From Thauera humireducens (GTDB lineage: Bacteria > Pseudomonadota > Gammaproteobacteria > Burkholderiales > Rhodocyclaceae): 64,000 bases of DNA. The DNA is taken from NCBI RefSeq assembly GCF_001051995.2, contig NZ_CP014646.1:3162001-3226000 (forward strand). Reading direction: 5' to 3'. A program made the position numbers and the translations under genes. Below are positions 58,879 through 61,673 of the stretch, piece by piece. Under the pieces are notes generated by a model. That model was not told where the DNA came from and searched no databases. It saw only the letters and a list, made by a program, of their open reading frames with translations. How positions within the stretch are numbered: the first letter of the stretch is position 1; each line of letters opens with the position of its first letter.

Positions 58879-58913
58879 TGGAGCGGGTGAAGGGAATCGA
58901 ACCCTCGTCATGA
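58879..58913 (-). tRNA. tRNA-Gly(CCC), 3' exon (split gene)
   Basis: 35-base 3' half of a glycine tRNA interrupted by a group II intron. It begins TCATGACGAGGG, giving the last three bases of the anticodon stem and the variable region. The T-arm GAGGG-TTCGATT-CCCTT, acceptor strand CACCCGC, discriminator T and encoded CCA follow. CACCCGC pairs perfectly with the GCGGGTG of the 5' exon at 61597-61603, and TCA completes the TGAGC/GCTCA anticodon stem. The two exons total 75 bases, a normal tRNA-Gly. Annotation programs would miss it. Confidence 0.88.
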
Positions 58914-58954
58914 GTCGGGTAAGGAGGCGGCCTCACGGCCACCCCCTCCCCTAA

Positions 58955-58988
58955 GAACCGTACGTGCAAGTTTCCCCGCATACGGCTC
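58955..58988 (-). ncRNA. Group II intron domain V
   Basis: 34-base catalytic hairpin: 5' strand GAGCCGTATGCG, tetraloop region GGGGAAACTTGC and 3' strand ACGTACGGTTC. It has the shape of bacterial group II domain V with an AC bulge region. Domain VI (58914-58954) follows directly. Confidence 0.9.
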
Positions 58989-59007
58989 AAGCAACCCGGA
59001 AACGCCT

Positions 59008-60678
59008 CTACTTAAAGCAGGAGACGCCGGCAGGGCCGTACAACTTTTCCAGTACGTGGTGCTGCATATGGCAGTTCGGATGTAGCAGAACCAGATTGGT
59101 CAGCTTGTCCGTTCCTCGGTTGGATCGCTTCACGATGTGGTGTAGGTGCCACCCCGTTTCCTGCGTGATCCTCTGGTCGCAGATCGGGCAGATACCGCTT
59201 TGCCATCCCCACAACCACCGGAGTTTGTGGCGACCCTCGAGCGTCTTTTCCATCTTCCGGCTGAGGCGTTTGGAAAAATACTCGTCATACCTTGGGTCGT
59301 ACGGGTTCGCTTCCCCCTTCACCTTGGTGTGCGGCCGTTTTCGGTAATCGCACAAGTTGGGGAGTTGCTTATCCATGACCGCAAACCGCCAGTCGCGCCC
59401 CTTGAGACACTTGAAATAGCGCAGTTTGATCCACCGTTTTCCCTTGTTAGGGTGACGGCGGCACGCCCAACGCCATAACGCTTCCCAGATGCGATGGTCG
59501 CATTTTGCAAACGCCTGGGATGACATCTGACTTCGATGATAGTTCGCCCAACCCCGTATGACCGGAGAGAGTGCGTCGATCACGTCGATCTGATGTGCAG
59601 CCTTCCGTTCGTGCAGCAAGCCGCGGATCTTGCTGAGAAACGCTTTGATATTCTTCTTCGACGGCTGTGTTACCAGCATGCCGTTGTAGAACCGTACGTT
59701 CCATCCCAAGAAATCGAATCCCTCGGTCACGTGTGTGATCTTGGTTTTCGTCTCCGAGAGCGCAAGACCCCTGGAAGCCAGAAACTTCTCAACCAGTGGC
59801 TTGACCGTCCGCTCCAGCAACTCGCGAGAGCTGCCAGTGATGACGAAGTCGTCGGCATACCGCACCAGGTTGATCTTGGCCGCTTGTCGGTCGCGCCGTG
59901 TAAACGGCAACGATTCGAGTTCGCGCTCAAGACCGTCTAGGGCGATGTTGGCCAGTACGGGCGAAATAATGCCGCCCTGCGGTGTACCCGCTTTCGTCGG
60001 GAAAAGCTGTCCCGTCTCGATGAACCCTGCCTTCAGCCACTTCCGGAGGATGCCTTTGTCCATGCAGACGTTGGCGATCAACCAGTCATGACTGATGTTG
60101 TCGAAACACCCTTTGATATCTCCCTCGAGTACCCATTTTGCCGAGTTGCCTCTGCCAAGTACGTTCCGTACCTGTTCGATCGCGTCAGCAGTGGAGCGCT
60201 CACGGCGGAAGCCGTAGGAGTTGTGATCGCCGATTGTTTCTGCAACAGGATCCAGCGCCAAGAGATGCAGCGCTTGCATGGCCCGGTCGCGCATGGTCGG
60301 GATGCCCAGTGGTCGGGTTCCGCCACTTGCTTTCGGGATATTTATGCGACGCAGCGGGAGCGGTTTGTATTTCTTGTTGCCGAGTTCGGCAACCGCTCGC
60401 CACTTGTCTTCTGGAGTGCCCCAGGTTTGCTTATCCACTCCTGGAGTTTTCCGACCGCGGTTCTCAGTGACCCTTCTCACAGCCAGCGCTTTCGCGCTAG
60501 AGGAGTTGGTGAGCAACCGCTGCAGGGTGCGAACCTTCCGCCATTCACCTGCTTGTACTGCCTTCGCAATTCGTTTCTGTAGCCCCGCGACAACTTTGCA
60601 TGCCTTGACCCAGTGAATCTCGTGCCAAGAGCGCCAAGCTGCGAAGGCGACATCACAATCGTGCTGACTTGCGTCCAT
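59008..60678 (-). CDS. ltrA: Group II intron reverse transcriptase/maturase with HNH endonuclease
   Basis: 556 residues. Reverse transcriptase blocks include TPGVDKQTW, RPLGIPTMRDRAMQ, EGDIKGCFDNISHDWL, GTPQGGIISPVLANI and the catalytic VRYADDFVITG. Then comes the maturase (X) region with IRGWANYHRS. A C-terminal HNH endonuclease ends the protein: CPICDQRI, WHLHHIVKRS and LVLLHPNCH. All catalytic motifs are intact, with no frameshift. It reads from ATG 60678 with GGAGG five bases upstream; that site lies just past the 3' end of the embedded tRNA gene. It helps the intron splice and move by target-primed reverse transcription. The gene symbol is used by analogy. Confidence 0.94.
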   Translation of the reverse strand: MDASQHDCDVAFAAWRSWHEIHWVKACKVVAGLQKRIAKAVQAGEWRKVRTLQRLLTNSSSAKALAVRRVTENRGRKTPGVDKQTWGTPEDKWRAVAELGNKKYKPLPLRRINIPKASGGTRPLGIPTMRDRAMQALHLLALDPVAETIGDHNSYGFRRERSTADAIEQVRNVLGRGNSAKWVLEGDIKGCFDNISHDWLIANVCMDKGILRKWLKAGFIETGQLFPTKAGTPQGGIISPVLANIALDGLERELESLPFTRRDRQAAKINLVRYADDFVITGSSRELLERTVKPLVEKFLASRGLALSETKTKITHVTEGFDFLGWNVRFYNGMLVTQPSKKNIKAFLSKIRGLLHERKAAHQIDVIDALSPVIRGWANYHRSQMSSQAFAKCDHRIWEALWRWACRRHPNKGKRWIKLRYFKCLKGRDWRFAVMDKQLPNLCDYRKRPHTKVKGEANPYDPRYDEYFSKRLSRKMEKTLEGRHKLRWLWGWQSGICPICDQRITQETGWHLHHIVKRSNRGTDKLTNLVLLHPNCHMQHHVLEKLYGPAGVSCFK

Positions 60679-60696
60679 ATCAACCTCCGGTTGAAA

Positions 60697-60771
60697 TGGA
60701 GCGGGCGATGGGAGTCGAACCCACGTCTCTTGCTTGGGAAGCAAGGGTAATAGCCGTTATACGACGCCCGC
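60697..60771 (-). tRNA. tRNA-Gly(CCC), intact, inside the group II intron
   Basis: 75 bases including encoded CCA. Acceptor GCGGGCG/CGCCCGC with discriminator T (normal for glycine), anticodon stem CTTGC/GCAAG around loop TTCCCAA (anticodon CCC), and T-arm GTGGG-TTCGACT-CCCAT. It differs from the split copy in the anticodon stem, T-stem and one acceptor pair, so it is not a simple recent duplicate. It sits between intron domains I-III and the RT gene, 18 bases before that start codon. No clear promoter of its own is seen. Confidence 0.95.
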
Positions 60772-61101
60772 TCTGTCCCTAGTGGGATAGACGCACTTCT
60801 CCCCTGGCGGGGATAGTACATCATCCCCGTCGGGTGCGATTTTACAGATCTGTCTTGCGACAGGTCACCAGATGGAAGTCTGCACGCTTTCGCGTCGGGG
60901 CGATCGTTTCATCCCCTATCCACGCCATTACAGCGAGGCATTTGCTTTTTCCATCCTCCTCTACCCACTGTGACACCGGTTGGTCTCACGACCGCCCTTG
61001 TCTGGCTTGACTGGCCAGACGCCACGTCGGGCTTACCTCGTTCCGTACAAGTAACAGAGTTGGGAAGGTCCTGCCTTTCCGCCGGTGATGCTATGTCAGC
61101 G

Positions 61102-61124
61102 TGTCCGCACCAAGCAAGCGGACA
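61102..61124 (-). other. EBS1 hairpin of the group II intron
   Basis: A 7-bp stem (TGTCCGC/GCGGACA) with the nine-base loop TTGCTTGGT on the intron strand. GCTTGG in the loop pairs with CCAAGC at the 3' end of the upstream exon, which fits exon-binding site 1 in domain I. Confidence 0.7.
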
Positions 61125-61563
61125 TCCGATCACGTGCCATTTTGGCAGAGCCCGATACAACAAGTTGCGTTTGGCTCACCGAGCTTGACGACGTTTAGCG
61201 GCAGTTCACTTGTGTTGACCATCCAACTCAGTCTAGCGCCTCATTCGGGTGCAACTCCCGAAATCACACCGAACCCCTCACGGGATATGGCGTACCCCGT
61301 AAGGTGGCTACATTGTCAGAGCGCTTAGCACCCCACCGTTACCAGTGACGCACTGCTCCTAGACTACCGGGGGCTGAACCCCGGGTTCTGTCACCCCCTT
61401 TCGAGGGGCAGAACCATTACTCATACGGCCTTCGCCGTTTCGTGCCTTACGGCACTCTTTGAAAGGCTGAGTTTCTGTGCGCCCACCGCAATGGTGGTGA
61501 TCCCGCAATGGGATCGCGTGGCACAGAGGCTACAGCTAGCCTTCGACTCGGCTCGAGTCGCAC

Positions 61564-61603
61564 GCTTGGGAAGCTCAGGTAATAGCCATTATACGACACC
61601 CGC
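61564..61603 (-). tRNA. tRNA-Gly(CCC), 5' exon (split gene)
   Basis: 40-base 5' half: acceptor GCGGGTG, D-arm region TCGTATAATGGCTATTAC, anticodon-stem strand TGAGC, loop TTCCCAA (anticodon CCC) and the first two stem bases GC. The group II intron follows at once with GTGCG. The cut falls between tRNA positions about 40 and 41. A promoter lies upstream at 61644-61673. Confidence 0.88.
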
Positions 61604-61643: not shown

Positions 61644-61673
61644 ATTCTAATGGCCGGCTGCCCGTTGTGGCAA
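61644..61673 (-). promoter_or_regulatory. Promoter of the split tRNA-Gly gene
   Basis: TTGCCA (-35, 61668-61673) and TAGAAT (-10, 61644-61649), 18 bases apart on the minus strand, about 40 bases before the tRNA 5' end. It would drive the split tRNA, the intron RNA, the RT gene and the embedded tRNA in one transcript. Confidence 0.6.

What the first reader, a model, noticed from the sequence alone, without database searches (positions are those of the whole stretch)
58879..61603. tRNA-Gly(CCC) gene split by a group II intron that carries an intact tRNA-Gly(CCC)
Seen directly: a 40-base 5' exon (61564-61603) and a 35-base 3' exon (58879-58913) join into a perfect 75-base tRNA-Gly(CCC). Both the acceptor stem (GCGGGTG/CACCCGC) and anticodon stem (TGAGC/GCTCA) match only when the exons are joined. 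The 2650 bases between start GTGCG, end AC, and hold domains V/VI and an intact RT-maturase-HNH gene. Inside the intron, just before the RT gene, is a complete tRNA-Gly with the same anticodon. Bacterial group II introns rarely sit in tRNA genes. One carrying a spare copy of the gene it interrupts would be a self-rescuing mobile element, so that the host survives even if splicing is slow. I know of no described example; this is inference, not a literature search.
Basis: partly seen in the sequence, partly recalled or inferred. Interest (0 to 1): 0.92.

Follow-up and report, generated by a model that had tools for sequence, protein, structure and literature searches.

The report
Intron carrying its own rescue tRNA
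A mobile self-splicing intron that breaks a bacterial glycine tRNA gene carries inside itself a complete, slightly different copy of that same tRNA, and dozens of related introns in other bacteria do the same, which looks like a natural 'insert and rescue' genetic element.

Summary
Observation confirmed. In a Thauera-genus genome a 2650-nt group II intron (RT-maturase-HNH) splits tRNA-Gly(CCC) and carries an intact, different tRNA-Gly(CCC) in domain IV, 18 nt before the RT gene. It belongs to a monophyletic family in beta- and gammaproteobacteria. Of 44 family loci among the 80 kept from one scan, 38 show an intact cargo tRNA, one is broken by assembly Ns, three by foreign DNA, two start too late. 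No cargo equals the gene it replaces (0 of 36). In the main set 38 of 44 cargos lack A29 at the splice-site base pair, against 3 of 43 targets and 13 of 126 intron-free genes; three members found later keep A29, two of them changing pair 31-39. Predicted EBS2 pairs better with target than cargo in 30 of 39 introns (equal 6, worse 3). One genome holds sister introns, one in tRNA-Gly(CCC) with CCC cargo, one in tRNA-Gly(UCC) with UCC cargo, each EBS2 matching its own target. In two decayed loci the cargo is the only tRNA-Gly(CCC) found. Best reading: a natural home-and-rescue retroelement with a targeting-resistant replacement gene. Splicing, homing and tRNA function are untested; ten literature searches found no description.

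The parts
61564..61603 (-). 5' exon: first 40 nt of tRNA-Gly(CCC), ending ..CTTCCCAAGC
   Evidence: joined exons are tRNA-Gly(CCC) by ARAGORN with fully paired stems
58914..61563 (-). group II intron, 2650 nt, GTGCG...AC
   Evidence: Rfam RF02012 and RF00029; same site in relatives
61237..61385 (-). part of the catalytic core matched by Rfam group-II-D1D4-7
   Evidence: 110.2 bits, gathering 34
61180..61186 (-). predicted EBS2 (AAGCTCG): pairs 7 of 7 (one G-U) with the 5' exon, 5 of 7 with the cargo tRNA
   Evidence: inferred by pairing and covariation
61110..61115 (-). predicted EBS1 (GCTTGG) in a hairpin loop, pairs with exon CCAAGC
   Evidence: GCTTGG is present in every row listed there
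60697..60771 (-). cargo: complete tRNA-Gly(CCC) with encoded CCA, inside domain IV
   Evidence: ARAGORN, Rfam 58.8 bits
59008..60678 (-). intron-encoded RT-maturase with HNH endonuclease, 556 aa
   Evidence: TIGR04416 376.9 bits; Pfam RVT_N, RVT_1, GIIM, HNH; closest solved chain 6me0_C
58914..58990 (-). domains V and VI
   Evidence: RF00029 69.5 bits
58879..58913 (-). 3' exon: last 35 nt of tRNA-Gly(CCC) including CCA
61644..61673 (-). sigma-70-like promoter before the host tRNA gene (TTGCCA-18-TAGAAT)
   Evidence: 10 of 12 consensus matches; a TANNAT box lies within 70 nt upstream in 39 of 44 members (no chance level computed)

Best explanation
It is a mobile group II intron with an RT-maturase-HNH protein that homes into a glycine tRNA gene in the 3' half of the anticodon stem and brings a complete replacement tRNA of the same anticodon in domain IV. 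SHOWN by sequence: the insertion site, the intact joined exons, the intact cargo, the family-wide architecture, the match of cargo and target anticodons, and the usually weaker predicted pairing of the intron with its cargo. INFERRED: (1) transcription from the host tRNA promoter gives one long precursor; (2) RNase P and 3'-end enzymes cut the cargo tRNA out of domain IV, so that the host keeps decoding whether or not the exons are spliced; domain IV is where nearly all natural trans-splicing group II introns are split, so splicing could still follow; (3) the intron RNP retrohomes into intron-free alleles through EBS1/EBS2, while the changed anticodon stem of the cargo (mostly pair 29-41, sometimes 31-39) weakens recognition and shields the cargo; (4) once the split gene decays, the host depends on the cargo. 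It works like an engineered home-and-rescue drive with a resistant rescue copy.
For: Family: of 80 loci kept (of 561 found) 44 form the tRNA clade. 39 show a 5' exon with the CCC anticodon, L098 does so on its neighbouring stretch L021, three (L125, L127, L134) show only a tRNA-Gly-type 3' exon, L135 no exon. 38 carry an ARAGORN-called cargo, L109 one with Ns, L098, L125 and L135 one cut by foreign DNA; L127 and L134 start too late. The RT tree separates 41 clade rows from 36 relatives without tRNA on one branch (SH-aLRT 99; one change if L135 is set aside). Anticodon tracking: L210 and L211, one genome, CCC-in-CCC and UCC-in-UCC, sister RTs inside the clade; each EBS2 pairs 7 of 7 with its own exon, 4 of 7 with the other's. 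Resistance: nt 29 is A in 40 of 43 targets and 113 of 126 intron-free genes but in 6 of 44 cargos (Fisher p 1e-20; 4 of 25 distinct cargos, p 3e-13); EBS2 favours exon over cargo in 30, ties in 6, loses in 3 of 39. Constraint: 25 distinct cargos, 97.7% of stem cells paired, 9 of 21 pairs changed on both sides, covariation score reached by 0 of 500 shuffles. Target copy number: in 39 of 42 carrier genomes two patterns find exactly two 5' halves, exon and cargo; G077 has one (the cargo), G002 and G368 three. In each of 7 genomes one uninterrupted tRNA-Gly(CCC) is found, the cargo in six, an island copy in G002. Natural deletions: G013 and G077.
Against: No RNA, splicing, mobility or growth data. 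6 of 44 cargos keep A29, and so do all three cargos found later (L209, L210, L211), making 9 of 47; two of these three flip pair 31-39 instead. EBS2 pairs as well or better with the cargo in 9 of 39. One intron copy (G261, L087) has neither RT nor cargo. The UCC case is a single genome. By eye no promoter is conserved before the cargo. Joined exons are called tRNA-Gly(CCC) in 37 of 38 loci (the other has Ns), 7 of the 37 with one anticodon-stem mismatch, so spliced tRNA may suffice and the cargo may be only a back-up. 106 of 229 class genomes gave no match to the tRNA-Gly(CCC) pattern, so that gene may often be dispensable. One of five covariation measures, further pair types, did not exceed its shuffles (405 of 500 as high). 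Rows are related, so the p-values overstate independence.
Confidence: 0.82

Rival explanations
1. The cargo is a processing signal: RNase P and tRNA 3'-end enzymes cut at it to release a translatable RT mRNA or to split the intron, and its glycine identity is incidental.
For: It always lies directly before the RT start, 12-46 nt away and mostly 18; no promoter is visibly conserved before it (by eye).
Against: Any tRNA would do, yet every intact cargo seen has the anticodon of its target, including the switch to UCC; cargos differ between introns with nearly the same flanks but stay CCC; the cargo survives in decayed introns.
Confidence: 0.08
2. The cargo is a rescue gene, but its divergence from the target serves to avoid homologous recombination and gene conversion with the flanking exons, not to resist the intron.
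For: Cargo and own joined exons are 72-97% identical and never identical, 0 of 36 after one duplicate locus is set aside. A loss of one half of an intron exists (G013). 9 of 47 cargos keep A29.
Against: In the main set the difference concentrates on pair 29-41, nearly fixed as A-T in targets and with A29 in 113 of 126 intron-free genes, while acceptor and T arms stay nearly the same.
Confidence: 0.2
3. Splicing alone restores the tRNA; the cargo is a passenger copied once by recombination and now neutral.
For: Joined exons are called tRNA-Gly(CCC) in 37 of 38 loci.
Against: One neutral capture does not explain intact, covarying cargos over a clade with RTs down to about 60% identity, nor the matched UCC cargo.
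Confidence: 0.04
4. Assembly artefact or chance juxtaposition.
For: None found.
Against: Same junctions in many assemblies, including the single-contig own genome and the chromosome record CP054864.1 (L106).
Confidence: 0.01

Closest known systems
Mobile group II introns with RT-maturase-HNH proteins (closest solved relative by sequence: chain 6me0_C, maturase reverse transcriptase, E 3.3e-183)
   Same: Ribozyme domains, intron-encoded protein in domain IV, EBS/IBS target pairing
   Different: Sits in a bacterial tRNA gene and carries a full replacement copy of that gene; the passages seen in one review (PMC4424553) describe no such cargo
Chloroplast trnK intron with matK (passage in PMC4424553)
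   Same: Group II intron inside an essential tRNA gene, with an intron-encoded maturase
   Different: No tRNA inside the intron (recalled); the review says RT activity and presumably mobility are lost; organellar
Group I introns in bacterial tRNA genes, e.g. Azoarcus tRNA-Ile (title in the reference list of PMC4390854)
   Same: Self-splicing intron in a bacterial tRNA gene
   Different: Different ribozyme; no replacement tRNA known to me (recalled)
tRNA-targeting phages and integrative elements that restore the tRNA 3' end (recalled)
   Same: Use a tRNA gene as target and spare the host
   Different: Integrase-based and restore only the end of the gene; some integrated DNA here even sits in the intron-borne tRNA
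Engineered home-and-rescue (HomeR) gene drives (abstract and passages of PMC7968924)
   Same: Copies into a target gene and carries a re-coded rescue of that gene
   Different: CRISPR-based, synthetic, in flies; here a natural retroelement and an RNA gene

Membership tests
Group II intron | Domain V-VI structure | tested here: met
   RF00029 69.5 bits; also in 6 of 8 relatives given to (not in L082 and L188, which lack that half)
Group II intron | Domain I-IV catalytic core | tested here: met
   RF02012 110.2 bits; 7 of 8 relatives (L188, a fragment, without)
Group II intron | 5' GUGYG and 3' AY ends (recalled definition) | tested here: met
   GTGCG...AC in the window; many relatives end CC instead and G002 ends CG
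Group II intron | RT-maturase (here with HNH) in domain IV | tested here: met
Group II intron | EBS1-IBS1 and EBS2-IBS2 pairing with the 5' exon | tested here: met
   by predicted pairing; EBS2 changes with the target in L210/L211 and L121
Group II intron | Splicing and retrohoming activity | not testable with these tools
   needs RNA and mobility assays
Home-and-rescue element (works like) | Element inserted inside the target gene | tested here: met
Home-and-rescue element (works like) | Carries an intact copy with the identity of the target | tested here: met
   CCC; UCC
Home-and-rescue element (works like) | Rescue copy resists the element's own targeting | tested here: inconclusive
   nt 29 and EBS2 counts support it; 9 of 39 pairings and 9 of 47 cargos do not fit the simple form; no assay
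Home-and-rescue element (works like) | Rescue copy functional in the host | tested here: inconclusive
   only tRNA-Gly(CCC) found in G013 and G077; no RNA data
tRNA-targeting integrase element | Site-specific integrase encoded by the element | tested here: not met
   the one large frame of the intron that was profiled is the RT-maturase; the shorter frames listed were not profiled
A named group II class (such as chloroplast-like) | Place in the published RT class tree | not tested
   only the closest solved chain was found

The most novel reading that the evidence does not exclude
This is a natural home-and-rescue selfish element, the first I know of: a retrohoming ribozyme that disrupts a tRNA gene found in one copy (in the UCC case presumably essential) and replaces it with a captured allele that resists its own targeting, and that switches to another tRNA gene by changing EBS2 and the cargo anticodon together. 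It makes the host depend on the element or its remnant and may spread through a population as a replacement drive.
Probability: 0.6. Interest if true: 0.95.

Novelty: new variant of a known kind. Interest (0 to 1): 0.92.

Why it matters
Group II introns are generally held to avoid needed genes or to rely on splicing (recalled). A family that instead carries a changed replacement of the gene it breaks shows a third strategy, the one engineers arrived at for gene drives. It offers natural replicates for how rescue, resistance and target switching evolve together, a test of whether a tRNA can be cut out of domain IV while the intron still splices, and a warning for annotation: in the window a tRNA finder reports only the inner gene and misses the interrupted one.

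Tried and rejected
An internal promoter for the cargo (60868-60839, 9 of 12) was dropped because by eye it is not conserved in the family. Whether intron-free tRNAs with cargo-like stems are domesticated cargos was tested on the 13 of 126 intron-free genes without A29: no convincing intron remains lay beside them (two short hits, E 0.001 in G413 and 0.009 in G571, taken as chance). 5 of these 13 genomes have an RT match, the best 41% identical. One of the 13 (G507) is identical to the second commonest cargo, that of 6 of 44 rows. My first EBS2 scan used a loose anchor that misread some loops; one search replaces it, and four introns without an anchor there (L101, L128, L129, L137) are not in its count. 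Plasmids: 1575 records matched part of the intron, none over 80% of it. Viral contigs gave 6 and 5 RT loci; the 6 had no tRNA; one further contig (L223) was not scanned. A 3'-half pattern with wrong spacing was redone for seven genomes. Rows left out of the RT trees: L119, L127, L134 (truncated), L169 (match length not a multiple of three), L164 (same exons and cargo as L136; the whole loci were not compared). L164 is also left out of the nt-29 and EBS2 counts. The 18 strong loci overlap the 44 and are not added to them. Not found in print: ten searches (one search was for gene drives) of an open-licence library in which most subscription papers are missing.
Full report
OBSERVATION. The finding is real and exact. 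On the minus strand, GCGGGTG..CTTCCCAAGC (61603-61564) and TCATGACG..CACCCGCTCCA (58913-58879) flank a 2650-nt insert. Joined, they are a tRNA-Gly(CCC) by ARAGORN with no mismatch in acceptor, anticodon or T stems. The insert has group II domains by Rfam (D1-D4 110.2 bits; D5-D6 69.5 bits) and an intact 556-aa RT-maturase-HNH protein. Eighteen nt before its ATG ends a complete tRNA-Gly(CCC), 60771-60697, with encoded CCA. The own genome is one contig. Its genus is Thauera, since the same-genus genome G002 has a contig of the same length as the Thauera propionica record NZ_NOIH01000003.1. The upstream neighbour has PEP-utilising enzyme domains (PTS enzyme I type) and the downstream one is an Lrp/AsnC-type regulator. 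In 14 of 15 same-genus genomes checked (16 loci), the same upstream gene stands before a tRNA-Gly(CCC) without intron; in G007 a truncated tRNA precedes the complete one. So empty sites exist and the joined exons are the native gene.

A FAMILY, NOT A CURIOSITY. A search of 297 genomes drawn from the taxonomic family found a relative of the 5' ribozyme in 22: 18 strong and four weak (G036, G103, G244, G332; no tRNA called in their fetched loci). Of the 18, 15 show an intact tRNA-Gly(CCC) cargo and G002 one cut by an island. G189 is split over contig ends. G261 (L087) has an intron copy with neither RT nor cargo, followed directly by a second intron start. Forty-four of the 80 belong to the tRNA clade: 38 with an ARAGORN-called cargo (12-46 nt before the RT, mostly 18), one with assembly Ns in it (L109), three with the cargo cut at its T arm by foreign DNA (L098, L125, L135), two starting too late (L127, L134). 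Thirty-nine of the 44 show a 5' exon with the CCC anticodon, L098 shows it on its neighbouring stretch, three show only a 3' exon, and L135 shows none. Hosts by record title include Thauera, Azoarcus, Accumulibacter, Dechloromonas, Azonexus, Gallionella, Sideroxydans, Massilia, Duganella, Piscinibacter, Paenalcaligenes, Solimonas and Lysobacterales. One record is titled Planctomycetota (L136), but it shares exons and cargo with L164, a 'Proteobacteria' MAG, so binning is doubtful. In the RT tree (77 rows) the 41 clade rows lie on one side of a branch with SH-aLRT 99, against 36 relatives without a tRNA from 1500 nt before the RT to about 800 nt past it, as far as the loci reach. One change explains the trait if L135 is set aside. 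Wherever a 5' exon is read, the site is the same: after CCAAGC, in the 3' strand of the anticodon stem.

THE CARGO TRACKS THE TARGET. A pattern for the D6 end followed by a tRNA T arm, run on 369 class genomes, matched in 4: the window's own, G682 (CCC in CCC, L209), G608 (two places) and one unrelated hit (G516). In G608, L210 is an intron in tRNA-Gly(CCC) with a CCC cargo. L211 is its sister (RT 78% identical) in the tRNA-Gly(UCC) of a Tyr-Gly-Thr cluster, and its cargo is tRNA-Gly(UCC). L211 groups with L210 (SH-aLRT 99) inside the clade (quick method). Predicted EBS2 changes with the target: AAGCTGA for CCC and AAGGCTG for UCC, each 7 of 7 with its own exon and 4 of 7 with the other's. A generic processing signal would not behave so. 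It is one genome.

THE CARGO LOOKS RESISTANT. GCTTGG (EBS1, pairing with CCAAGC) is in every row; EBS2 (AAGC plus three) pairs upstream. tRNA nt 29 lies in IBS2 and its stem partner nt 41 is the first 3'-exon base, so one base-pair change touches both sides of the splice site. Nt 29 is A in 40 of 43 targets and 113 of 126 intron-free genes of the class (letters read by eye), but in 6 of 44 cargos; among distinct cargos it is 4 of 25. Six-nt EBS2 pairs better with the exon than with the cargo in 30 of 39 introns, equally in 6 and worse in 3; four introns without an anchor were not scored. Five of the 25 distinct cargos also flip pair 31-39. The three members found later, not in these counts, all keep A29 (9 of 47 in all): L210 and L211 flip pair 31-39 and L209 changes only the outer stem. 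In these three the first six EBS2 bases still favour the exon (6 pairs against 5 each). So resistance is well supported as a trend, with exceptions and without independence of lineages.

THE CARGO IS UNDER CONSTRAINT AND IS EXCHANGED. The 25 distinct cargos keep 97.7% of stem cells paired, with 9 of 21 pairs changed on both sides. The covariation score was reached by 0 of 500 shuffles; the count of further pair types did not exceed its shuffles (405 of 500 as high). Introns with flanks 87% and 96% alike may differ in cargo (78%, L099/L132), while L118 and L112, with flanks 74% and 73% alike, share an identical cargo. One cargo, in 6 of 44 rows, equals a native tRNA of a bacterium without intron at that gene (G507). 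Exchange by recombination among tRNA-Gly genes is the likely source (inference).

WHAT THE HOST DEPENDS ON. Two complementary patterns over 42 carrier genomes found exactly two 5' halves, exon and cargo, in 39. G077 has only the cargo, G002 a third, island-borne copy, and G368 one extra elsewhere. A pattern for an uninterrupted anticodon-to-T arm finds one gene in each of seven genomes, the cargo in six and the island copy in G002. In G013 the RT, D5-D6 and 3' exon are absent from the assembly; the 36-nt hit elsewhere is tRNA-Gly(UCC). In G077 only an intron fragment with the intact cargo remains and no 5' exon is found. In these two draft genomes the cargo is the only tRNA-Gly(CCC) seen. Joined exons are called tRNA-Gly(CCC) in 37 of 38 scorable loci, 7 of them with one anticodon-stem mismatch, so most members may still splice, and cargo and spliced tRNA may coexist. 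Against a strong need for CCC itself: 106 of 229 class genomes gave no match to the pattern.

MECHANISM. The likely order is: transcription from the tRNA promoter; excision of the cargo by tRNA-processing enzymes; splicing in cis or, after the cut in domain IV, in trans, since domain IV is where nearly all natural trans-splicing group II introns are broken (passage of PMC4424553); retrohoming into native alleles but less into the cargo. All RNA and mobility steps are inference.

KNOWN AND NEW. Membership in group II introns is met on structure and protein; activity is untested. Passages seen in PMC8919778, PMC4424553, PMC3073962, PMC4390854 and PMC4033280 mention no intron carrying the tRNA it interrupts, and the searches named in Tried and rejected listed none. 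The closest functional parallel is the engineered home-and-rescue drive (abstract and passages of PMC7968924). I rate it a new variant of a known kind with an unusually novel strategy.

Noticed in passing
L021:3138-3324 and L022:5890-5925 (G002, Thauera propionica contig): An island of about 21 kb sits in the T arm of the intron-borne tRNA and carries its own complete tRNA-Gly(CCC) about 55 nt inside its left end, with two large frames behind it, the first recombinase-like (my reading, no profile run): a third layer of tRNA replacement at one locus.
   Followed up: partly
L082:1-1281 (G241), L125:1-520, L135:4900-5010: Foreign DNA uses the intron-borne tRNA as its site: a frame with an Arm-DNA-binding domain typical of integrases begins shortly after the cargo in G241, and in L125 and L135 foreign DNA ends at the cargo's last 18 bases.
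   Followed up: partly
L036 (G007:C87:116556-116740): A truncated tRNA-Gly(CCC) is followed about 55 nt later by a complete one of another type, the same layout as the G002 island end but without the intron.
   Followed up: no
L087:2700-3854 (G261): An intron copy without RT and without cargo is followed directly by the start of a second intron (D6 end joined to GTGCGACGCG): tandem insertion at the 5' splice site.
   Followed up: no
L111:6690-6760 (Massilia sp. Bi118): Domain V is interrupted by a sequence starting GTGCGCC, possibly another group II intron nested in the ribozyme core (by eye).
   Followed up: no
L077:3386-3828 (G158) and L127:1-140: Two halves of what looks like one locus (contig of equal length, 402797): the RT match ends near residue 106 on one contig and resumes at 104 on the other, with other DNA between, so the RT gene seems broken there while the cargo is intact.
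   Followed up: no
window:58914-58915 and relatives: The intron's last two bases are AC in the window and several relatives, but CC in many members and CG in G002.
   Followed up: no
L102, L112, L115, L124, L126, L129, L169 (joined exons): The joined anticodon stem has one mismatch in these 7 of 37 loci; whether native tRNAs there have it too was not checked.
   Followed up: no
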